Below are positions 11,525 to 52,402 of a DNA stretch of 64,000 bases, piece by piece. Both the position numbers and the translations under genes were made by a program. The stretch's first letter is position 1. Each line of letters starts with the position of its first letter. The stretch lies in NCBI RefSeq assembly GCF_009711525.1, contig NZ_SMLV01000433.1, positions 1 through 64,000 on the forward strand, written 5' to 3'. The DNA is from Fulvivirga lutimaris. GTDB taxonomy: Bacteria; Bacteroidota; Bacteroidia; Cytophagales; Cyclobacteriaceae. A model generated the notes under the pieces. That model had not been told where the DNA came from and did no database searches. It saw only the letters and a list, made by a program, of their open reading frames with translations.

Positions 11525-13711
11525 ATGAGAATACTTTTGAGTGTCCTGCTATTCTTTTTAGCACAATCTGTATTAAGTCAAACTTATGTTATTGATCAGT
11601 CGATTCCTGTTAAAGAAGGAGATCGATATCTGTCCAATGCATGGAGCGGAGGGTTAAATTCTGGCCAATATAGCACCATTGATATCAACTTTGATGGGGT
11701 AGATGACTTAGTAGTTTTTGATAGAACATCATCAAAAATCAACGTGTTCATCAACGAGGAAAATGAATACAAATATCATCCCGAATATGCCTCCCATTTC
11801 CCTACTGGAATAAGTAACTGGATGCTTCTAAGAGATTATGACTGTGATGGACGCAAAGACATTTTTACAAGCGATCCTTTAGGGATTAGAGTGTATGTAA
11901 ATAAGAGTGATGGCGAAAATGTGAAGTGGAGGCTTTTTAATTCCAGGGCACCACAACCTTCACCCTTACTAACCAAAGGATTTTCTGCATCCCCTATTAA
12001 CATTCAAATGAACAGCTCTGACATTCCGTCTATTGATGATGTTGATGATGATGGAGACTTGGACATTTTACTCTTCAGGTTTTCTTCAGTTTCAACAGTG
12101 GAGTTTCACAAAAATCTGAGCATGGAACGTACTGCCAGCTGTGACTCTATGCAGTTTGAGCGCATTACACAGAGTTGGGGTGATTTTCAGGAGTGTGGCT
12201 GCAGAAGCTTTGCTTTTAATGGAGAAGATTGTCCAAATGGAGGAAGGACTGAGCATCAATCGGGTAAGTCTTTACTAACACTAGATCTTGACGGGGATGG
12301 TGATCATGATGCATTGTTTGGTGAGGAGGATTGTGGTTTTATTAATCAACTCCCCAATGATGGAACAAAAGAGTTGGCTGATATAAATAAGGCCTCCATT
12401 AATTTCCCAAATGTTGAAGAGCCTATTGCCTTTAATATTTTTCCTGCTACTTATTTTGAGGATGTAGATTTTGACGGAGTGAAGGATCTGATAGCAGCTC
12501 CTAACGTGCCTACCAATGTTGGCTATGGGGTTGATTTCAAGCGGTCGAGTTGGTTTTATAAGAATAATGGAACCAATGAAAACCCCTCTTTCTCCCGGGT
12601 TCAATTAGATTTTCTTCAGGATGGGATGCTAGAATTTGGGGAGAATGCTGTGCCAGCATTTCATGATTATGATGGTGATGGAGACCTAGATATGTTTGTT
12701 GGAAGCACTCTGGATAATACAGGTCGCTTCTCATCAGCCATTAGATATTATAAAAACATTGGTACTTCAAGCCTTCCTGAATTTTCATTAGAAGAAGAGG
12801 ATTTTTTAGGGTTTTCTAACATTGGCGCTATTGGCTATAAACCTAAATTTATGGACATCAACAAAGATGGTCTTATGGATATGGTTTTTAGCGCTACGCA
12901 GACCTCTACATTTTCTACTAGCATATTTTATTTGTTGGGCAGAAATACTTCAACAAAGTTTGATTCTCAAATCACGCAGTTTTTTGGCCCTTTAGGAACT
13001 GATGAGAATTTCGAAATTTATGATGTGGACAGCGATGGAGAATTTGATATTTTGGTGGGCCGTTCTACTGGTAGGGTTGAGTACTATCGTAATCTTGGAA
13101 ATTTTGAAACACCAAACTTTGTGCAGGAAGATCAATCATTTTACGATCTTGATTTTAGTCCGTTTAGACAAAATCCATCAATTGAAATCACGGATTTTGA
13201 TGTTGATGGAAATGCAGACATGCTAATAGGAGATGCCAGAGGGAATCTCACATTATATAATGACTTTCTGTCGACTATTGAGAATCCTGTTGAAGGGCTA
13301 ACTGAATTAGTAATTGTTAACGATAGTCTAAGCAGTTTTAATTTCGGAAGTAAAATAGCACCAGTGGCCGTCAACCTTTTTAATGAAAATAAACCAGCAA
13401 TAGCTATTGGAACAGGACAGGGTGGTATTTCAATATTGAGAAATCAGACGGCTTCTTCAAACCCTGGTAATGGAAATGTAGGTCTGTATCCTAATCCAAT
13501 TAGACCCGATCAGCTATTGACTGTCAGATCAAAAAAATCCTTCCTTGCTAATGTTGTAACTACTTCAGGTCAGGTTGTGATGAAGAACATTGAATTGGCG
13601 GCTAATGAAGATGTTATTGTTAACATATCAGCTTTAAAAGAAGGACTTTATATCCTATCTCCTGTAGACGGGAGCAAGTCAGATGCTATCCGTTTTGTAG
13701 TCTATAAATGA
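11525..13711 (+). CDS. T9SS-exported FG-GAP/VCBS repeat surface protein
   Basis: A 728-residue secreted protein. It has a signal peptide (MRILLSVLLFFLAQSVLSQ) and many calcium-binding-type VCBS/FG-GAP repeats with Asp-rich loops such as NFDGVDD, DYDCDGRKD, DVDDDGDLD, DLDGDGDHD, DYDGDGDLD and DSDGEFD. This suggests an integrin-alpha-like beta-propeller. A Cys-rich insert lies near residue 220 (CGCRSFAFNGEDC). From residue 653 (GLYPNP) to the end is a type A T9SS C-terminal sorting domain, so PorU, encoded at the left edge, would process it. In this family the propeller usually serves adhesion or ligand binding, but the ligand is unknown. It is the first gene of a three-gene overlapping unit, and its stop overlaps the next start as ATGA. 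Confidence 0.85.
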   Translation: MRILLSVLLFFLAQSVLSQTYVIDQSIPVKEGDRYLSNAWSGGLNSGQYSTIDINFDGVDDLVVFDRTSSKINVFINEENEYKYHPEYASHFPTGISNWMLLRDYDCDGRKDIFTSDPLGIRVYVNKSDGENVKWRLFNSRAPQPSPLLTKGFSASPINIQMNSSDIPSIDDVDDDGDLDILLFRFSSVSTVEFHKNLSMERTASCDSMQFERITQSWGDFQECGCRSFAFNGEDCPNGGRTEHQSGKSLLTLDLDGDGDHDALFGEEDCGFINQLPNDGTKELADINKASINFPNVEEPIAFNIFPATYFEDVDFDGVKDLIAAPNVPTNVGYGVDFKRSSWFYKNNGTNENPSFSRVQLDFLQDGMLEFGENAVPAFHDYDGDGDLDMFVGSTLDNTGRFSSAIRYYKNIGTSSLPEFSLEEEDFLGFSNIGAIGYKPKFMDINKDGLMDMVFSATQTSTFSTSIFYLLGRNTSTKFDSQITQFFGPLGTDENFEIYDVDSDGEFDILVGRSTGRVEYYRNLGNFETPNFVQEDQSFYDLDFSPFRQNPSIEITDFDVDGNADMLIGDARGNLTLYNDFLSTIENPVEGLTELVIVNDSLSSFNFGSKIAPVAVNLFNENKPAIAIGTGQGGISILRNQTASSNPGNGNVGLYPNPIRPDQLLTVRSKKSFLANVVTTSGQVVMKNIELAANEDVIVNISALKEGLYILSPVDGSKSDAIRFVVYK

Positions 13712-43189: not shown

Positions 43190-43216
43190 AAAAAAGTCCC
43201 TTGTGGGACTTTTTTG
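43190..43216 (+). terminator. Rho-independent terminator after rpmB-rpmG-DUF4295
   Basis: A perfect 11-base-pair hairpin: AAAAAAGTCCC (43190-43200), loop TTGT, GGGACTTTTTT (43205-43215), followed by GTTTTATTT. It begins 26 bases after the DUF4295 stop. Because the stem arms are A-rich and T-rich, it could also work in the opposite direction. It is the clearest terminator in the window. It separates the ribosomal genes from ftsY, whose start is at 43252. Confidence 0.85.
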
Positions 43217-43251
43217 TTTTATTTGAATATCCACCCAACTCAAACACGTTC

Positions 43252-44208
43252 ATGGCATTATTCGGAGGTTTATTTTCAAAGGAAAAAAAAGAGTCTCTAG
43301 ATAAAGGTCTTGAGAAGACTAAAGAAAGTTTATTTACTAAACTCGGCAAAGCCGTTGTAGGTAAATCAAAGGTAGATGATGAAGTTCTTGATGAACTTGA
43401 GGAGGTATTGATTACTTCTGATGTGGGTGTTGACACAACGATTAAAATAATTCAGCGAATTGAAGAGCGTGTTGCGCGGGATAAATATCTTGGTGTTGAT
43501 GAGCTTGATAAGATTCTGAAAGAAGAAATTGCCGCTCTTCTTTCTGAAAATAATACGCAAGACCTTGCAGAATTTTCTATTCCTACTGGAGCCAAACCAT
43601 ATGTTATCATGGTAGTTGGGGTCAATGGAGTAGGTAAAACCACTACTATTGGGAAGCTTTCTGCTCAATTTAAAAAAGCCGGGTACAATGTTGTTTTAGG
43701 AGCTGCTGATACATTTAGAGCAGCTGCTGTTGATCAATTAATACTCTGGGGAGAAAGAGTAGGAGTTCCGGTGATATCTAAAGGCATGAATACCGATCCA
43801 TCGGCTGTGGCATTTGAAGCTGTGGAGTACGGAGTTAAAAACAATGCAGATGTAGTTATTATAGATACTGCAGGCAGGTTACATAATAAGGTTAACCTTA
43901 TGAACGAGTTAACTAAGATCAAGAGAGTGATGCAGAAGTTTGTAGAAACTGCCCCTCATGATGTGATGCTAGTATTGGATGGCAGCACAGGCCAAAATGC
44001 CATGATCCAGGCAAAGGAATTCACCAAAGCAACTGAAGTGACTTCACTGGCCATTACAAAGCTTGATGGTACAGCTAAAGGCGGTGTTGTCATTGGCATA
44101 TCAGATGCCTTCAAAATCCCTGTTCGTTACATTGGGGTAGGCGAAAAAGTAGATGACTTACAAGTCTTCAATAAAGGAGAGTTTGTGGATTCTTTGTTTA
44201 AGAAATAA
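43252..44208 (+). CDS. ftsY: Signal recognition particle receptor FtsY
   Basis: An SRP-family GTPase of 318 residues that docks ribosome-SRP complexes at the inner membrane. The N-terminal helical N domain is followed by the G domain. G1 is GVNGVGKT (residues 123-130), then the ADTFRAAAVDQL insertion-box motif, DTAGR (G3) and TKLDG (G4), with GVGEKVDDLQVF near the C-terminus. The acidic A domain is almost absent, as is usual in this phylum. I chose ATG 43252 (MALFGGLFSKEKKES). The frame continues 17 codons upstream, but those lie inside the terminator region and are not family-like. Confidence 0.95.
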   Translation: MALFGGLFSKEKKESLDKGLEKTKESLFTKLGKAVVGKSKVDDEVLDELEEVLITSDVGVDTTIKIIQRIEERVARDKYLGVDELDKILKEEIAALLSENNTQDLAEFSIPTGAKPYVIMVVGVNGVGKTTTIGKLSAQFKKAGYNVVLGAADTFRAAAVDQLILWGERVGVPVISKGMNTDPSAVAFEAVEYGVKNNADVVIIDTAGRLHNKVNLMNELTKIKRVMQKFVETAPHDVMLVLDGSTGQNAMIQAKEFTKATEVTSLAITKLDGTAKGGVVIGISDAFKIPVRYIGVGEKVDDLQVFNKGEFVDSLFKK

Positions 44209-44349
44209 TTATTCTAGCTCAGTTAGAAACTGAAATTCCTCAAACCACTGACTAACAGCTTCTTAGCTACTTATTTTATTTCAATCTCCTCTTATAATAT
44301 TCTTTCAATAATAAAAACATTATACTTTTTAAGTATTTAAGGATAAAAT

Positions 44350-44357
44350 TATCTTTG
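44350..44357 (+). promoter_or_regulatory. TATCTTTG -7 element before the 1711-residue surface protein gene
   Basis: An exact match to the Bacteroidota -7 consensus TAnnTTTG, ending only six bases before the ATG at 44364. No clear TTG partner lies at the usual distance, only a T-rich stretch at 44326-44330. If used, transcription would begin almost at the start codon, giving a leaderless or near-leaderless mRNA. Confidence 0.4.
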
Positions 44358-44363
44358 TAGGCT

Positions 44364-47300
44364 ATGAGAAAGCTTGCGTTTTTAATTTTAGCCCTATTAT
44401 CATCTTATTACGGACACACTCAGAGTAACGACTGTGAAACCGCTATTCTTGCTTCGATTGGTGTGAATTACACACCGACTGCTCCATACTATTTTACCTA
44501 TACTTCCACTCAAAGGGAGGCACTAACCATATCGACAGCAGGTACAGGTCGCGACACCCACCTTAAAGTTTACGATGAATGCGGGGGAATTGTACTTGCT
44601 GAAAATGATGACATAGACATTGGAGCAGCAATCTATCAATCTGAATTAACCATTGAATTATCCTTAGGCCAAACGATTAAGATTGAATGGCTTGACACAT
44701 GGGAGAGTGTACCATTTGAATTTCAAATGTATCAGTTGCCATATTCAGTTGTTTCTGAGTCAGACTCATTAGCTTTAGTTGCTCTCTACAATAGTACTAA
44801 TGGTTCAAACTGGAATAAAAAGACCAACTGGCTAACTTCACCTGTTTCTTATTGGTATGGTATTACTGCTGAGGATGGCGGTGTGACTGAGATAAACTTA
44901 AAAGACAATGGTTTGTCTGGAGCATTGCCTGCAGAGTTAGCCAATATTTCTACACTACAAAGTCTTGTAATTGATGGTAATGAGCTAGATGGGCTATCAG
45001 ATCTTACTTCCTTACCTGTCCTATCTGAATTTAGTATATCCGATAATTATTTAACATTTGAAGATTTTGAATTAAACGCTTCTGTAATTACATCAAATAC
45101 TTCTCAGAAGCCCTTTGGCGAAATAGGTTTCAGGACTTTAAACCTGGGTGATAATATCACATTGAATCCGAGCTGGGCAGATGCATCTTCAAATAATGTC
45201 TTGCAGTGGGAAAAGAATTCTGAAAATATTAATGCTGCAAATGCACCTACCTACAATATTCCAAGTTTATCAAGCTCAGATGAGGGTGTTTATATTTTAA
45301 AGGTAACAAATTCTGATTTTCCTTCAGTAGTGTTAAAGAGCAACCCGATCACTTTATCGTTGCCTTTATTAGAAACAGATTCATTAGCATTAGTTGCACT
45401 TTACAATGCAACGGGGGGACAATATTGGGAAAATAATGCCAATTGGCTCAATGACCCTGTTAATACATGGTATGGTATCAAGCTAAAAGGCGGGAGAGTA
45501 TCCGAAATTTTGCTTCCAAATAATAACCTATATGGATTTTTACCAGATCAGTTGTGGCAGTTGACTGCATTAGAGGCACTTGATATCTCAAATAGTTCTT
45601 TTTTTGAAGAAGGCAAAGAAGAATATGACGGCATGTCACTGCCTCCAGAAATTGCCATGCTCTCTAATTTAAAGCATTTAAATCTTAGTTCTATTTATCT
45701 AAGAGGTTCTTTACCAGCTGAGTTAGGAAGTTTGACGAAACTGGAGTATCTCAATTTGGGTGATGGGTTATCGCGGACTATTGTCTACAGCAATGAAAAT
45801 AGATTAGACCTTCCATTGCCAAGTGAGTTTGGAAATTTGATCAATTTAAAAACATTGAGCCTATCGGGTATTAGAGATGTTAAGAGCAATAGTGCTTTTC
45901 CAGAAATAATAATGTCTTTGACAAATTTGGAGACACTAAGAATGTATTTTAATCCATTTGCTGACTCTTTACCGTCCAGTATTGAAAATTTAACCAACCT
46001 AAAACATCTTAAAATTGATATACCCTTGACTGAAAGCCTAAAGAACTTAAGTCTCACTACCTTAGATATATCTTATAATCCCAATTGGGGAATAGATTTG
46101 ACAACACTAACTAATGTGGAAGAACTTGTATTTAGAAGCAGTAAATTGGATAGCTTGCCTTCATTGCCTCCATCTTTAAAGTCACTAGATATTGGTGATA
46201 ATAGGTTCTATGATATTCCGGATTTATCGGGTTCAGCAATAGAAAGCCTGATTATTGACCTTAACTATTTAGAGTTTGATGATCTCGAGTCGGGTGCTCC
46301 TGAAGGCATTAATGAATTTGTATATGTTCCTCAAAAGGAATTTGGTTCCATTCAGGAAAGGTATGTGCATCTTGGAGATGCTTTCACTTTTAGTTTTGAT
46401 GTACCAGGCTCAGCCAATAGTTATAGAATAAGGGGGGAAGAGATTCTTGGCCCAGAGTATTCTGTTGAGCCGGTAACCCTTAATGATGATGGGGATTACC
46501 AGCTAACAGTGACAAATTCATTAGTCCCTGATCTTGTGCTTAAAAGCGCACCCGCGCTTGCATTTATTTTACCCGACCTACCTATAGAAGGAGAACTTTT
46601 TGATAGAGTAGATGGTGGAGATCTTACTCAATACGGCAAGGACCTCCAGCTTAATTATGGTGGTCAATGGGCAGATATTGATAATGATGGTTTTGAAGAT
46701 GTGATTGTTACTAATTATGCAGCAAATCATCCCATAAGATCATATATGTTTAAAAATGATGGCAATGGTAAATTTTCCAAGGTCAATTCAAATAATTATG
46801 GGTTTGCATCAGGAAGGAATGCAGCATTCGGTGATTATAATAATGATGGTTTCATTGACTATTTTTCACCCAATCTTCTAATCGAACCTTCAGTTACTTT
46901 TCCAACAGATACTTTAGTTTATGCTTCAATTCAAAAGAATAATGGAGACGGCACTTTTTCCCCTATTTACCTTAATGATGATGTTGCCTTAAAGTCAGGT
47001 ACCTGGTTAGATGTAGATAATGATGGAGATTTGGACTTATTAGTCTTAACCTATGAAGGAAATTATTTGTACATTAATGAAGGCAATGATTCTTTTAGAA
47101 AGGACACAAATACTTTTCCAATAGGAGGTAGTTGGACCCCAGTTGCCTTAGATATCAATAATGATGGTGCTATTGATGTTTTTATTTTAGACGGGGTTGC
47201 GCAGGATCTTTTTAAGATTCGCATGCCATATCTTAATAATGGAGATGGCATATTTGTCCTTGATGAAACAATTGTAGCCTCGGATACCAGCAAATATAAT

Positions 47301-49499
47301 CGGGGTATTTCCTTTGCAGACATTGATAATGATGGTGATTATGATGCATATCTGGCAAGTCAGCCTTCTGTCTCTCAATCTGAAAGTAGATTTTATATTA
47401 ACGATGGTACCGGTAATTTTACTGTTTTGCCTTCCATAGATGTACTTGGAGAGATTGTAAAAGGTGGGCGAGGGAGTGCTTTTGGTGATTACGACAATGA
47501 TGGTTTGGTTGATTTGCTAATAGGAAAGCAAGCGTCTGGTGGTGCTGAATGGGCACTTTATAAAAACAATGGTGATCATACCTTTACAAAGCAAGTAAAT
47601 TCATCATTTGGGGAAGGAAGCGGTTTTGGGGGAGTCTCGATGGTTGACTACGATAATGACGGATTTCTTGATATACTAACAGCCACTTGGGGATTGGATT
47701 ATAATGGACTGTACCATAATAAAGGTAACGCAAACAATTGGCTTCAAATAAAGCTGGAAGGTACTATTTCCAACAGAAGTGCTGTAGGTGCAAAGGTTGA
47801 TGTGTACACTCCAGATGGGAAGAGAAACCATCAGCAAATACTAACTACCAATGGCTTCGCTAATCAAAACTCTCTAACCGCACAGGTAGGTCTTGGTACA
47901 AATACGGCCATAGACTCGGTAGTAATCAACTGGCCATCCGGCATAAAACAGAAGATTACAGAGCTTGAGATAAATAAGCGATTGACTATTAAAGAGCATA
48001 GCTTTGAGGCAGACTCTTTAGCACTTGTTGCATTGTATAATGCAACTTCTGGGGACAACTGGAATAGAAATAACAACTGGTTGGAAGCACCAGTAGCATC
48101 CTGGGCAGGAGTTTCTATAAAAAATCAAGCTGTAAATGGAGTAGTTCTTCCAAGTAATAATCTTGATGGAGAAATTCCCGAGGACTTTACAAGTATGACT
48201 GAGCTGGAAAGTTTAAACTTAGCAGATAATAAGTTAACTGGTGTACCAGATTTAACAAGTCTCACCCAACTCAATTCAATCAAACTAGACAGTAATTATT
48301 TAGATTTTGGAGATTTAGAGCCAATAGTAGCCCTGCCTGGTCTGACATATGATAATCAATTCAGTTTTGATTCTCCTTTAGACACATTAATCGATGAAGG
48401 TAAAAGCCTTGCCTTATCATTCATTGTTGGAGGTTCTAGTAATCAGTATCAATGGTATAAAGATAATGTGATACTGTCAGATAGCACTAGAAGTGAAATC
48501 TACTTTAATACTATAGGATCAGAGAATGAAGGGGAGTATTATGCGGAAGTTAGCAGTTCTAAAGTTCCGGATTTGGTTATTACCTCAGCTATTAGAAAGC
48601 TGATGGTAAACTATGATGTGGGAAGTGACTCTTTAGCATTAGTTGCTTTATACAATTCTACTAATGGAGTCAACTGGAATAAAAATAATAATTGGTTAAT
48701 GAATCCGGTTTCTTCGTGGGAAGGAGTTGCTATTAAAGATGGCCATGTTAGAACTCTGAATTTGCCTAAAAACAACCTTGATGGTGATATCTCAGAAGAA
48801 TTTTTGACTATGACAGAACTTGAGCAGGTGGATTTTTCTGATAATAAAATAACAGGTGTTCCAAATGTTACAGGCCTATTGAAATTGAGTTCTATTAAAC
48901 TCGATAGTAACTATTTAGACTTTGCTGATTTGGAAAGTATAGCAGCTATGCCAGGTCTGACTTACAGTAATCAATTCATGCTAGACACTCCAATAGACAC
49001 CATAGTCAATGAAGGGAGTGTTCTCTCACTATCTTTTAATGTTGAAGGCTCAAGTAATGAATATCAATGGTTTAAGAATGATGTGATTCTTGCTGATAGC
49101 ATCAGAAATGAGCTTTATTTTAATGGAATTGACGAAATTAATGACGGAGAGTATTATGTTGAAGCCACCAATGTGAAAGTGCCAGGTTTAATACTTACTT
49201 CTGCAACCAGAAAGGTAATAGTTGAATCAATTTTAGGACTTGATGAAGCAAGTAATCTTGTGTTTTTACCTTATCCTAACCCCGCAACAGACAAGATACA
49301 TATCCAATGGGACTCTGAAGATGAAGAGCTTCATATGATAATTTATAATAAGTCTGGAACGAAAATTTCAGACCAAACCATTGCTAAAGATCAGGCGCAT
49401 GTGGATGTCAGTAACCTGAATGCAGGAAGCTACATAGTGACCTTAGGATCAACGGGCGGCAATGTTAAAGGTACCTATAGAATTGTAATTCAGAGGTAA
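44364..49499 (+). CDS. Giant modular T9SS surface protein: LRR/Ig modules, VCBS-UnbV core
   Basis: A 1711-residue secreted protein with a signal peptide (MRKLAFLILALLSSYYGHTQ). An N-terminal region (20-130) resembles pre-peptidase C-terminal/jelly-roll domains. Four copies of a module starting DSLALVALYN begin at residues 134, 339, 1217 and 1422. Each has a plant-LRR-like NWL..PV.(S/T)W.G element followed by leucine-rich repeats, and copies 1, 3 and 4 have an Ig-like domain (EGxYxLxVTN type). Copy 2 has a longer LRR and also ends in an Ig-like stretch. Between copies 2 and 4, residues about 765-1115 are VCBS/FG-GAP repeats (DIDNDGFED, DVDNDGDLD) followed by an ASPIC/UnbV domain (about 1125-1200; RSAVGAKVDVYTPDGK). 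A T9SS sorting domain starts near 1634 (FLPYPNPATD). Probably an adhesin or ligand-binding protein; ligand unknown. Confidence 0.85.
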   Translation: MRKLAFLILALLSSYYGHTQSNDCETAILASIGVNYTPTAPYYFTYTSTQREALTISTAGTGRDTHLKVYDECGGIVLAENDDIDIGAAIYQSELTIELSLGQTIKIEWLDTWESVPFEFQMYQLPYSVVSESDSLALVALYNSTNGSNWNKKTNWLTSPVSYWYGITAEDGGVTEINLKDNGLSGALPAELANISTLQSLVIDGNELDGLSDLTSLPVLSEFSISDNYLTFEDFELNASVITSNTSQKPFGEIGFRTLNLGDNITLNPSWADASSNNVLQWEKNSENINAANAPTYNIPSLSSSDEGVYILKVTNSDFPSVVLKSNPITLSLPLLETDSLALVALYNATGGQYWENNANWLNDPVNTWYGIKLKGGRVSEILLPNNNLYGFLPDQLWQLTALEALDISNSSFFEEGKEEYDGMSLPPEIAMLSNLKHLNLSSIYLRGSLPAELGSLTKLEYLNLGDGLSRTIVYSNENRLDLPLPSEFGNLINLKTLSLSGIRDVKSNSAFPEIIMSLTNLETLRMYFNPFADSLPSSIENLTNLKHLKIDIPLTESLKNLSLTTLDISYNPNWGIDLTTLTNVEELVFRSSKLDSLPSLPPSLKSLDIGDNRFYDIPDLSGSAIESLIIDLNYLEFDDLESGAPEGINEFVYVPQKEFGSIQERYVHLGDAFTFSFDVPGSANSYRIRGEEILGPEYSVEPVTLNDDGDYQLTVTNSLVPDLVLKSAPALAFILPDLPIEGELFDRVDGGDLTQYGKDLQLNYGGQWADIDNDGFEDVIVTNYAANHPIRSYMFKNDGNGKFSKVNSNNYGFASGRNAAFGDYNNDGFIDYFSPNLLIEPSVTFPTDTLVYASIQKNNGDGTFSPIYLNDDVALKSGTWLDVDNDGDLDLLVLTYEGNYLYINEGNDSFRKDTNTFPIGGSWTPVALDINNDGAIDVFILDGVAQDLFKIRMPYLNNGDGIFVLDETIVASDTSKYNRGISFADIDNDGDYDAYLASQPSVSQSESRFYINDGTGNFTVLPSIDVLGEIVKGGRGSAFGDYDNDGLVDLLIGKQASGGAEWALYKNNGDHTFTKQVNSSFGEGSGFGGVSMVDYDNDGFLDILTATWGLDYNGLYHNKGNANNWLQIKLEGTISNRSAVGAKVDVYTPDGKRNHQQILTTNGFANQNSLTAQVGLGTNTAIDSVVINWPSGIKQKITELEINKRLTIKEHSFEADSLALVALYNATSGDNWNRNNNWLEAPVASWAGVSIKNQAVNGVVLPSNNLDGEIPEDFTSMTELESLNLADNKLTGVPDLTSLTQLNSIKLDSNYLDFGDLEPIVALPGLTYDNQFSFDSPLDTLIDEGKSLALSFIVGGSSNQYQWYKDNVILSDSTRSEIYFNTIGSENEGEYYAEVSSSKVPDLVITSAIRKLMVNYDVGSDSLALVALYNSTNGVNWNKNNNWLMNPVSSWEGVAIKDGHVRTLNLPKNNLDGDISEEFLTMTELEQVDFSDNKITGVPNVTGLLKLSSIKLDSNYLDFADLESIAAMPGLTYSNQFMLDTPIDTIVNEGSVLSLSFNVEGSSNEYQWFKNDVILADSIRNELYFNGIDEINDGEYYVEATNVKVPGLILTSATRKVIVESILGLDEASNLVFLPYPNPATDKIHIQWDSEDEELHMIIYNKSGTKISDQTIAKDQAHVDVSNLNAGSYIVTLGSTGGNVKGTYRIVIQR

Positions 49500-49578
49500 G
49501 TGATTGCCGTGACTTCATTTCTTTAAATACAGAACGGAAAGCATATTTATGGAGGTTGCTCATTAGATTTAACTCACA

Positions 49579-49600
49579 AAATACCCGCTACTAGGTATTT
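49579..49600. terminator. Candidate bidirectional terminator hairpin
   Basis: A 7-base-pair inverted repeat, AAATACC (49579-49585) and GGTATTT (49594-49600), with an 8-base loop. It is followed by an A/T-rich run (CCTAAAATTTTAATAATT). It lies 80 bases beyond the stop of the 1711-residue gene and could terminate that transcript, though it lacks a clean T tract. Confidence 0.35.
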
Positions 49601-49619
49601 CCTAAAATTTTAATAATTA

Positions 49620-49652
49620 TGACATTGCATATTCAATAATATGAATGTGTCA
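49620..49652. repeat. Imperfect 33-base hairpin overlapping a small ORF start
   Basis: Outer stem TGACA (49620-49624) pairs with TGTCA (49648-49652). After a small internal loop, an inner stem CATATT (49628-49633) pairs with AATATG (49638-49643) around a CAAT loop. The inner right arm contains the ATG (49641-49643) of the 22-codon frame, so folding of the RNA would hide that start codon. Confidence 0.5.
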
Positions 49653-49709
49653 ATCAATCGGTTCGAGCTATTTATCTTAATCATGACGATCATCTTGCTG
49701 ATAGTCTAA
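49641..49709 (+). CDS. Possible 22-residue hydrophobic microprotein
   Basis: An ATG-to-TAA frame of 22 codons. The predicted peptide starts MNVSINRFELF and continues as an almost uninterrupted hydrophobic stretch ILIMTIILLIV, enough for one membrane span. Such features are typical of small membrane peptides and type I toxins, but length alone allows chance occurrence. The start codon is buried in the hairpin at 49620-49652. No homologue is recognised, and no promoter of the exact TAnnTTTG type was seen. Confidence 0.25.
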   Translation: MNVSINRFELFILIMTIILLIV

Positions 49710-49805
49710 TTTTTCAGCAGTCGTAGTATAGCGGGAAATGTAATTTTAGAAAGCAAAAATTCACAGGTGTTGGTTTTAGGGAGGTAAGTGTCGAGGCTTA
49801 GCTCC

Positions 49806-50561
49806 CTATTTTATTTCTTCTATTTTATCCTTCTTGAAAGGAACTCTAAAAATCAGCCAATACTCCAGACCCCAAGCTGATTCACGTGTGGCAGCACCAT
49901 AACCTGGGATCCAGTGAGGAGCTAATGCATTATTATCATAGTTATCATTTACCCTAAACTTAAAACGTGCTGTATACCCTGACCATACATATTTCGTCAA
50001 ACGCACCTTTAATCCAGTGGTGATCTCAAACCAGTTACTTTTTAATTCAGCGTTTGAGGCACGTTTAGAATTATCTCCATAAACCGGATTAGTATAATCA
50101 TAGACTATATAGTCTGAATATTTAGATCTGGCATATCTAAGCCCTATGAAAAGCGCATTCTTTTTCGGGTCTTTATGGAAGAAATTTACATCGGGGCCTA
50201 TTTTAATAAAGGTACCTTCATTATAATATTCTGACGCTGGCGCAATCCAGTATCTTTCAAATTTTCCGTATTCAAAATTTAGAAAATATCTGTAAATATC
50301 TATATCTGCACTAAACTTCCATTGCCTTACATCTGCTTGAGTCAAAGCTCTAATACCATTTTTTTGAACGCCTTGGCCAAAGCTAACCAGGTCAATACCT
50401 ACTCGTAGCCCGGTGGGTTTAAATTTAGAAGGGGCTTTCTGTATCGAATCTTTTTGAACCGGTTTAGCTACTGATGCGCTATCTATTTTACTTTCGGTTG
50501 ATTGACCAAAAGACATCAGCGAAGCCTGAACAAATAAGATACTAATTAAAAATCTTAACAT
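49806..50561 (-). CDS. DUF6048 family protein, probable outer-membrane barrel
   Basis: A 251-residue exported protein: signal peptide MLRFLISILFVQASLMSFGQ, a short linker rich in Lys, Ser and Pro, then amphipathic beta strands (GLRVGIDLVSFGQGVQ, FSADIDIYRYFLNFEYGKF, NALFIGLRYARSKY, WGLEYWLIFRVPF). This pattern suggests an eight- to ten-strand outer-membrane beta-barrel. Size and partner gene match the DUF6048 family of Bacteroidota. Its start lies inside the last 20 bases of the DUF6452 gene, so the pair is translationally coupled. Function unknown. Confidence 0.7.
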   Translation of the reverse strand: MLRFLISILFVQASLMSFGQSTESKIDSASVAKPVQKDSIQKAPSKFKPTGLRVGIDLVSFGQGVQKNGIRALTQADVRQWKFSADIDIYRYFLNFEYGKFERYWIAPASEYYNEGTFIKIGPDVNFFHKDPKKNALFIGLRYARSKYSDYIVYDYTNPVYGDNSKRASNAELKSNWFEITTGLKVRLTKYVWSGYTARFKFRVNDNYDNNALAPHWIPGYGAATRESAWGLEYWLIFRVPFKKDKIEEIK

Positions 50562-51003
50562 TTTCTGTTACTACGTTAGACTCACCTAATGTTATTTGTA
50601 AAGATCTATTAACAAATCTTATTGAATCGAAGTCGTTTCTCACCTTTCTTAAATTTTCAATCATTATTTCTGCTCCGCATTCTTCAGAAATCAATCGGGT
50701 CACGGTGTTGTAACTTATAATTAGAGTATCAACTCCAAACTCTGTATCGAAAACAGCCGCTATGCTTGTATCTGATGGGTTAATAGGGAGTAGCACATTA
50801 TTTGTTGACTCAATATTTTCAAGTAAGGCGGCCTCAATACCAACTACTTGTAGTTTATTTACTCTAATAGCCATTGCATCACCGGTATTTATATCATAAA
50901 ACCCAATACCCATTGTAGTACTTGCCAGACGAATACAATCTGGATCATTACATCCTACCAAGAATAGATAGGCTAAAAACAAAATTCCGGTTATTTTTCT
51001 CAT
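50542..51003 (-). CDS. DUF6452 family lipoprotein
   Basis: A 153-residue predicted lipoprotein: MRKITGILFLAYLFLVGC with lipobox LVGC, followed by NDPDC. The body is beta-rich with a conserved-looking cysteine near EECGAEI. It fits the DUF6452 family, which occurs directly upstream of DUF6048 in many Bacteroidota, and the two overlap by 20 bases here. A lipoprotein paired with a barrel suggests a small outer-membrane complex. The role is unknown. A TATATTTG promoter-like element lies 10 bases upstream of the start. Confidence 0.72.
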   Translation of the reverse strand: MRKITGILFLAYLFLVGCNDPDCIRLASTTMGIGFYDINTGDAMAIRVNKLQVVGIEAALLENIESTNNVLLPINPSDTSIAAVFDTEFGVDTLIISYNTVTRLISEECGAEIMIENLRKVRNDFDSIRFVNRSLQITLGESNVVTENVKIFN

Positions 51004-51013
51004 TAAGTGGCTG

Positions 51014-51041
51014 CAAATATAACTATCCCTCGGTCAACCAA
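51014..51041 (-). promoter_or_regulatory. Candidate promoter of the DUF6452-DUF6048 pair
   Basis: On the minus strand: TTG (complement of 51039-51041), a 17-base spacer, then TATATTTG (complement of 51014-51021), an exact TAnnTTTG match. The spacing fits the flavobacterial-type consensus TTG-N17-23-TAnnTTTG. The start codon is 10 bases beyond the -7 element, so the leader would be very short. Confidence 0.5.
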
Positions 51042-51060
51042 GAAGCAATTTTATTTTTCT

Positions 51061-51068
51061 TAATTTTG
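51061..51068 (+). promoter_or_regulatory. rimO: TAATTTTG -7 element before rimO
   Basis: An exact TAnnTTTG match 20 bases before the TTG start codon of rimO at 51089. No TTG partner is seen at the expected distance upstream. Together with the minus-strand element at 51014-51021 it makes this 85-base gap a compact divergent promoter region. Confidence 0.4.
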
Positions 51069-51088
51069 CTCCTTAAACACCACTGATT

Positions 51089-52402
51089 TTGAAAACCAAG
51101 GGAAGAAAAAAGGACAAGGTAAATATTGTAACGTTAGGTTGCTCAAAAAATATTGTTGATTCAGAAGTAATGTTGACACAGCTACGTGGCAACAAAATTG
51201 ATACCACTCATGAATCTGCTGAGGATGATGCTAATATTGTAATTGTAAACACCTGTGGTTTTATTGATAATGCTAAACAGGAGTCTATAGATACCATTCT
51301 CAGATATGCTGACGCTAAGAGCGAAGGTCTAATTGATAAATTATATGTTACTGGTTGCTTGTCTCAGCGGTATAAAGATGATTTGGAAAAGGAAATACCA
51401 TTGGTTGACTCTTTTTTCGGTACAATGGAATTGCCGTTGTTGTTGAAAAAATTTAAGGCTGACTATAAAAAGGAATTAGTTGGAGAGAGGATTTTAACAA
51501 CATCAAACCATTATGCCTATCTTAAAATTGCAGAGGGATGTGATAGACCATGCTCGTTTTGCGCTATACCTATTATGCGCGGTAAACACATTTCAAAACC
51601 TATCGAAGATCTTGTGTTAGAAGCTCAAAATTTGGCTAAAAATGGAACTAAGGAGCTTCTTTTAATTGCTCAGGACTCCACATACTACGGCCTTGATATC
51701 TATAAAAAAAGAAACCTTGCAGAGCTTTTGTCAAAGCTTTCTGATGTTGAAGGTATAGAGTGGATAAGACTTCATTATGCTTTTCCTACTGGCTTCCCGC
51801 TTGATATTTTGGATGTAATGGCCGAGCGAGACAATATCTGCAATTATCTGGATATGCCGCTCCAGCACGGATCTACCAATATGCTTAAGGCTATGCGAAG
51901 AGGAACAACCAGAGAGAAGCAGGAGGAGCTAATTCAAACGATAAGAGAAAAGGTGCCGGGTATTGCACTGAGGACAACTTTAATTTCGGGTTACCCGGGT
52001 GAATCAGAGCAAGACTTTCAGGAGATGTATGACTTTGTGGAGCGATCCAGATTTGAGAGATTGGGAATTTTCAACTACTCACATGAAGAAAACACCCATG
52101 CATATAATTTTACAGATGATGTACCTGATTCTGTGAAACAAGAAAGAGCCAATGCCGTTATGGACTTACAGGAAAAAATTTCCCTGGAAATCAACGAGGC
52201 GAAAATTGGCAAAACTTTCAAAACCTTAATAGATAGAGCAGAAAGTGGAACTTTTATTGGCAGAACCGAATTTGATTCACCAGAAGTTGATAATGAAGTA
52301 ATTATTGAATCAGATGATAATTACCTGAGGTTGGGAGATTTTGTTAATGTGAAAATTAACGATGCCACTGAGTTTGATTTGTATGGCGATGTGGTGAAAT
52401 AA
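51089..52402 (+). CDS. rimO: Ribosomal protein S12 methylthiotransferase
   Basis: A 437-residue radical-SAM enzyme that adds a methylthio group to Asp of ribosomal protein uS12. Three N-terminal MTTase cysteines (C18, C56, C90) bind one 4Fe-4S cluster. The radical-SAM CxxxCxxC (C151, C155, C158 in GCDRPCSFCAIP) binds the other. A C-terminal TRAM domain follows (about 370-437). MRRGTTREKQEELI and RTTLISGYPGE are typical of RimO rather than MiaB. The start is TTG at 51089. bshC follows after 26 bases on the same strand. Confidence 0.94.
   Translation: MKTKGRKKDKVNIVTLGCSKNIVDSEVMLTQLRGNKIDTTHESAEDDANIVIVNTCGFIDNAKQESIDTILRYADAKSEGLIDKLYVTGCLSQRYKDDLEKEIPLVDSFFGTMELPLLLKKFKADYKKELVGERILTTSNHYAYLKIAEGCDRPCSFCAIPIMRGKHISKPIEDLVLEAQNLAKNGTKELLLIAQDSTYYGLDIYKKRNLAELLSKLSDVEGIEWIRLHYAFPTGFPLDILDVMAERDNICNYLDMPLQHGSTNMLKAMRRGTTREKQEELIQTIREKVPGIALRTTLISGYPGESEQDFQEMYDFVERSRFERLGIFNYSHEENTHAYNFTDDVPDSVKQERANAVMDLQEKISLEINEAKIGKTFKTLIDRAESGTFIGRTEFDSPEVDNEVIIESDDNYLRLGDFVNVKINDATEFDLYGDVVK

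What the first reader, a model, noticed from the sequence alone, without database searches (positions are those of the whole stretch)
44364..49499. 1711-residue surface protein with four LRR/Ig modules, two of them a recent-looking tandem duplication
Modules beginning DSLALVALYN occur at residues 134, 339, 1217 and 1422. Modules 3 and 4 are exactly 205 residues apart and agree at well over half of their positions, including SIKLDSNYLDF and the Ig part. A VCBS/UnbV propeller is inserted between modules 2 and 3. LRR, Ig and integrin-like propeller modules in one exported chain suggest a multivalent adhesin that changes by module duplication.
Basis: partly seen in the sequence, partly recalled or inferred. 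Interest (0 to 1): 0.55.

Follow-up and report, generated by a model that had tools for sequence, protein, structure and literature searches.

The report
Modular secreted surface protein, old duplication
A Bacteroidota-type bacterium carries a large secreted surface protein built from common binding modules, and its most alike pair of modules was copied long ago rather than recently; it is an ordinary member of a widespread kind, sitting at a chromosomal spot where sister species carry other genes or none.

Summary
A 1711-residue ORF at 44364-49499 (+) has DSLALVALYN at residues 134, 339, 1217 and 1422, and modules 3 and 4 match at 125 of 205 positions without a gap. Anatomy: signal peptide, unassigned domain, two LRR/Ig modules, a propeller with seven calcium loops and an UnbV domain (CRTAC1 fold), two LRR/Ig modules, and a type IX secretion tail. 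Modules 3 and 4 group in the tree (96 of 100 bootstraps), so there was an internal duplication on this lineage. It is not recent: codons at conserved residues agree no better than chance (55 of 120, 0.458 against 0.430 +/- 0.035), much as for ftsY and rimO between species of the genus. DSLALVALYN and the 205-residue length are shared with far diverged modules. The gene is at this ftsY-rimO site in none of 13 measurable congeners, so module number between orthologues could not be compared. Similar architectures occur elsewhere. Most likely a calcium-stiffened surface binding protein; adhesion is inferred, not shown. A new member of a known kind.

The parts
44364..49499 (+). the whole gene, 1711 aa
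   Evidence: own-genome search recovers it once at 100%
44364..44423 (+). signal peptide (residues 1-20)
   Evidence: read from the sequence (positive start, hydrophobic core); no signal-peptide program was available
44424..44762 (+). N-terminal domain, residues 21-133, no Pfam match
44763..45377 (+). module 1, LRR cap + LRRs + Ig, residues 134-338 (205 aa)
45378..46598 (+). module 2, LRR cap + extended LRR stretch + Ig, residues 339-745
46653..47744 (+). seven-bladed FG-GAP propeller, residues 764-1127, one Dx[DN]xDGxxD loop per blade at 771, 824, 883, 930, 986, 1042, 1095
47781..47987 (+). UnbV/ASPIC domain, residues 1140-1208
48012..48626 (+). module 3, compact LRR/Ig, residues 1217-1421
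48627..49241 (+). module 4, compact LRR/Ig, residues 1422-1626, sister of module 3
49272..49496 (+). type IX secretion (type A) sorting domain, residues 1637-1711
43201..44208 (+). context: ftsY, upstream flank of the insertion interval
   Evidence: TIGR00064 over cut-off
49806..51003 (-). context: DUF6048 and DUF6452 genes, the pair kept in the interval in congeners
   Evidence: domains by Pfam in the window; the pair in congeners recognised by size, order and look of the ORFs
51089..52402 (+). context: rimO, downstream flank of the insertion interval
   Evidence: TIGR01125 over cut-off

Best explanation
A type IX-secreted cell-surface binding protein assembled from stock modules. Shown by sequence or fold comparison: LRR/Ig modules, a CRTAC1-type seven-bladed propeller with seven calcium-loop motifs, a type IX sorting tail, and a type IX translocon gene (SprA) in the same genome. 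Inferred: it is exported through Sec and then the type IX system, its tail is cut off or used for anchoring, calcium outside the cell stiffens the propeller, and the LRR faces and propeller face bind glycans or proteins on surfaces, prey, hosts or neighbouring cells, several sites per chain giving avidity. Modules 3 and 4 arose by one internal duplication on this lineage, after it parted from the nearest held relatives but long enough ago for silent sites to be randomised.
For: Domains; seven Dx[DN]xDGxxD loops at near-even spacing; model of 739-1216 with pTM 0.85 best matched by murine CRTAC1 9etn, E 1.2e-26, TM 0.79 on the query; SprA over cut-off and 34 of 35 sorting-tail matches over cut-off in the same genome; M3+M4 sister in 96 of 100 bootstraps, with the single modules of G010 and G011 next to them in 78 of 100; silent sites saturated. 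Precedents seen in passages: T. forsythia BspA is an LRR protein with a type IX tail (PMC5445135); F. psychrophilum LRR surface proteins with TIGR04183 tails (PMC5682007).
Against: No binding, localisation or expression data. The ligand is unknown. The M3-M4 tandem model is weak in its middle (mean pLDDT 70, pTM 0.53; 126 of 419 residues under 50), so it does not test the first Ig or the relative placing of modules; TM-scores on the query length were at most 0.27 in the 50 listed PDB matches. VCBS-like propellers have enzyme relatives (PMC9218822, passage), so a role in polymer capture or digestion is not excluded.
Confidence: 0.72

Rival explanations
1. Recent, ongoing module duplication: a contingency-style adhesin that changes length by recombination between near-identical modules.
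For: M3 and M4 are adjacent, of equal length and sisters in the tree. In F. psychrophilum the number of consecutive LRR proteins differs between isolates (PMC8400371, passages).
Against: M3/M4 DNA is only 66% identical, third positions 46%, conserved-residue codons at shuffle level; 66% is too diverged for easy homologous exchange (general knowledge). The longest repeat family found in the gene is the 122-nt cap region at 61-72% identity.
Confidence: 0.05
2. Enzyme-like or nutrient-capture protein: the propeller and LRR modules hold a polysaccharide or glycoprotein for uptake rather than for attachment.
For: VCBS-like propellers are typically tied to carbohydrate recognition, and family 11 rhamnogalacturonan lyases are catalytic relatives (PMC9218822, passage); the carbohydrate-binding fungal lectin PVL is the second-best fold match.
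Against: No catalytic domain in Pfam or NCBIfam scans; the genes read on either side (ftsY, DUF6048, DUF6452, rimO) are not a utilisation locus.
Confidence: 0.2
3. Self-recognition: the propeller/UnbV and LRR/Ig modules of neighbouring cells bind each other, holding aggregates together.
For: In five related ORFs that hold both parts an LRR cap follows the propeller (L011, L040, L158, L159, L169). LOTUS is listed as an antagonist of the Nogo receptor (titles and abstract starts only); that LOTUS is CRTAC1 and that this receptor is an LRR protein is recalled.
Against: No interface or co-variation test was made; the order may reflect simple domain shuffling.
Confidence: 0.03

Closest known systems
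G010:C6 (1338 aa) and G011:C1 (1335 aa) proteins of the same genus
   Same: FG-GAP propeller repeats, one compact LRR/Ig module nearest to M3/M4, type IX tail
   Different: one module, no UnbV match, a CarboxypepD_reg match, and a different chromosomal site
G021:C2 protein (3459 aa), another genus of the same family
   Same: LRR/Ig modules before and after a propeller-UnbV unit, then a type IX tail
   Different: twice as long, far more LRRs
CRTAC1 (PDB 9etn)
   Same: calcium propeller followed by UnbV/ASPIC; best fold match
   Different: animal protein; without LRR/Ig modules or type IX tail (recalled)
Tannerella forsythia BspA and Flavobacterium psychrophilum LRR surface proteins
   Same: LRR proteins with a type IX C-terminal signal (PMC5445135 and PMC5682007, passages)
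   Different: the passages name no propeller-UnbV domain; sequences not compared here

Membership tests
type IX secretion cargo (type A) | C-terminal sorting domain over the curated cut-off | tested here: met
   TIGR04183 39.5 bits against 23; PF18962 50.4 against 27
type IX secretion cargo (type A) | type IX translocon encoded in the genome | tested here: met
   SprA TIGR04189 2494.7 bits against 200; other components not searched
type IX secretion cargo (type A) | actual secretion and tail processing | not testable with these tools
   needs the organism
CRTAC1/ASPIC-UnbV propeller proteins | seven-bladed FG-GAP propeller with calcium loops | tested here: met
   seven loops; CRTAC1 top match
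CRTAC1/ASPIC-UnbV propeller proteins | UnbV_ASPIC domain after the propeller | tested here: met
   PF07593 63.5 bits against 23.4
bacterial LRR/Ig surface proteins | LRR repeats over cut-off | tested here: met
   LRR_8 61.5 against 27; LRR_4 58.5 against 27
bacterial LRR/Ig surface proteins | Ig-type domain following the LRRs | tested here: met
   Ig_3 50.9 against 30, three stretches; four module Ig ends by own HMM
phase-variable or length-variable adhesins | module-number variation between strains | tested here: inconclusive
   no orthologue in 14 congeners; one genome per species
phase-variable or length-variable adhesins | near-identical DNA repeats able to recombine | tested here: not met
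   66% DNA identity, silent sites randomised

The most novel reading that the evidence does not exclude
The propeller-UnbV unit followed by an LRR/Ig module is a recurring two-part device in Bacteroidota in which the CRTAC1-type part docks onto the LRR part, in the same chain or on a neighbouring cell, as a bacterial counterpart of the CRTAC1 (LOTUS)-Nogo receptor pairing; and the ftsY-rimO interval of this genus is a site where unrelated type IX-tailed surface genes are exchanged.
Probability: 0.05. Interest if true: 0.6.

Novelty: new member of a known kind. Interest (0 to 1): 0.2.

Why it matters
Mainly as a correction: conserved cap decamers and an exact repeat length look like recent duplication but are family features, and the silent sites show the copy is old. 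The gene adds a clean example of LRR/Ig and CRTAC1-type propeller modules in one type IX-secreted chain, and points to an interval between two housekeeping genes that takes up different genes within one genus.

Tried and rejected
Recent duplication or gene conversion between modules: rejected by silent sites; the cap of M1 is as close to M4 as M3 is (29 of 41 residues each), but codon agreement there is 16 of 26 and 13 of 26, too few to claim conversion. Positional orthologue of the G010/G011 gene: the DUF4915 gene next to it in G010 has a 76% match in the window's genome (C312), without an adhesin ORF beside it. Mobile-element footprint: the two ends of the gene were searched apart, giving no direct repeat at the 5' end and one 10-base pair of repeats at the 3' end; a repeat shared between the two ends was not tested. 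Promoter-like sites equal shuffles (25 found, 26.2 expected). Literature: searches for LRR with FG-GAP with type IX secretion in one paper gave 0 papers; that is a limit of the library, not proof of absence.

Codon-model dS: the YN00 method failed in every pair (math error) and NG86 gave no value for most controls, so the codon-agreement test was used instead. A self-BLAST in two scripts printed nothing and was not pursued. A first tree script failed and a second timed out; FastTree was used.

Full report
Observation. The ORF at 44364-49499 (+) encodes 1711 residues. DSLALVALYN is at 134, 339, 1217 and 1422. Modules 3 and 4 agree at 125 of 205 residues without gaps; the other 30 of 31 offsets tested (190-220) gave at most 23. 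The DNA of the two is 66% identical; codon positions 1, 2 and 3 agree at 73, 79 and 46%.

Anatomy. Pfam over cut-off: FG-GAP_3, FG-GAP, UnbV_ASPIC, LRR_14, LRR_8, LRR_4, LRR_1, Ig_3, Ig_2, I-set and Por_Secre_tail; NCBIfam TIGR04183 over cut-off. The NCBIfam matches to LRR effectors of pathogens are far under their cut-offs (54 bits against 450 for the best) and reflect LRRs only. The propeller has seven Dx[DN]xDGxxD loops 47-59 residues apart, read here as one per blade; such 'calcium blades' are described in PMC3123361 (passages). The model of residues 739-1216 (mean pLDDT 77, pTM 0.85, 12 sequences) has murine CRTAC1 as best PDB match (E 1.2e-26). The model of the M3-M4 tandem is partly poor; its PDB matches are LRR, LRR-Ig and Ig proteins such as NGL1, LINGO-1 and internalins, with TM-scores on the query length of at most 0.27 in the 50 rows listed. 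The genome has SprA and 35 sorting-tail matches, 34 over cut-off.

Is the duplication real, and recent? From 344 ORF translations longer than 250 residues in the loci held at that point, 56 caps were found and the 53 that also had an Ig part were used. M3 and M4 are sisters (local support 0.99), in 96 of 100 bootstraps; the single modules of G010 and G011 join them in 78 of 100; M1 with M2 in 32 of 100. In the cap-only tree the G010/G011 modules are not next to M3/M4. M3-M4 is shorter than G010-G011 in 97 of 100 bootstraps. So the copy was probably made on this lineage. But at residues conserved between M3 and M4, 55 of 120 codons are the same (0.458), against 0.430 +/- 0.035 for shuffled partners; ftsY and rimO between the window and six congeners (G010, G011, G014, G001, G005, G008; 12 comparisons) give 0.415-0.535, some of them clearly over their own shuffles, and G018 of another genus gives 0.349 and 0.441 (six of 13 usable congeners were put into this test). 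Silent sites are thus randomised and give a lower bound on age only. The decamer and the length do not argue for recency: the consensus of 16 aligned rows begins DSLALVALYNAT, and M1, 33% identical to M4, also spans 205 residues.

Relatives. Among 58 genomes searched, 27 including the window's own have a match at 1e-20, mostly to the propeller or single modules; none of the listed matches but the window's own is full length. In 15 genomes of the genus (own included) 7 have module matches at 1e-10. Of 14 congeners, 13 have ftsY and rimO on one contig (G003 lacks an ftsY match); the interval is about 1.3-1.4 kb in six (G004, G006, G007, G009, G010, G011) and 2.1-4.6 kb in seven, against 6.9 kb here (lengths by subtraction). 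None of the 13 holds this gene there. G005 and G013 hold a different type IX-tailed protein (761 and 803 aa) at that place, 59% identical to each other and with no meaningful match to this protein beyond the tail. G001, G002, G008 and G014 hold other genes, among them AraC-type regulators and a YdjM-like protein in the ones that were scanned (L142, L143, L145). In G012 no further ORF of 80 aa or more was listed. So the interval seems to take up genes repeatedly; absence by loss in the others is not excluded.

Known kind. LRR/Ig modules recur in many Bacteroidota loci. Five other ORFs join such modules to a propeller, and one, in another genus of the family, has the same order of modules, propeller-UnbV, modules and type IX tail. 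Published neighbours by passage: BspA and F. psychrophilum LRR proteins with type IX tails, bacterial integrin-type propellers (PMC3192720), FG-GAP with UnbV beside ice-binding domains (PMC9957290).

Mechanism. Export by Sec and type IX secretion, a calcium-stiffened propeller, and several LRR/propeller binding faces are inferred from the families; no ligand or function was shown. Adhesion is the likeliest role, nutrient capture the main rival.

Verdict. Observation confirmed; interpretation partly supported; 'recent' is refuted by silent sites and 'changing by duplication' could not be tested. Ordinary in kind.

Noticed in passing
window 44208-51089 and L144, L147, L142, L143, L145, L148: The ftsY-rimO interval varies from about 1.3 to 6.9 kb within the genus; two unrelated type IX-tailed surface genes occupy it in different species, and other species have regulators or other genes there.
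   Followed up: partly
window 11525-13711 (+): A second type IX-tailed protein with FG-GAP repeats, 728 aa, in the same window.
   Followed up: no
L162 2310-7454 (-), with L160, L161, L164: An LRR protein with a type IX tail (tail scanned in L162 only) of 1687-1715 aa is kept at near-constant length in four species of the genus, unlike the gene studied here.
   Followed up: partly
L158 2693-6706 (-), L159 2766-6770 (-): FG-GAP/LRR/Ig proteins that overlap the neighbouring gene (DUF4915 in L158) by one base and start without an evident signal peptide in the frame as read; the true start may lie elsewhere.
   Followed up: no
window 44424-44762 (+): N-terminal domain of about 113 residues with no Pfam match.
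   Followed up: no
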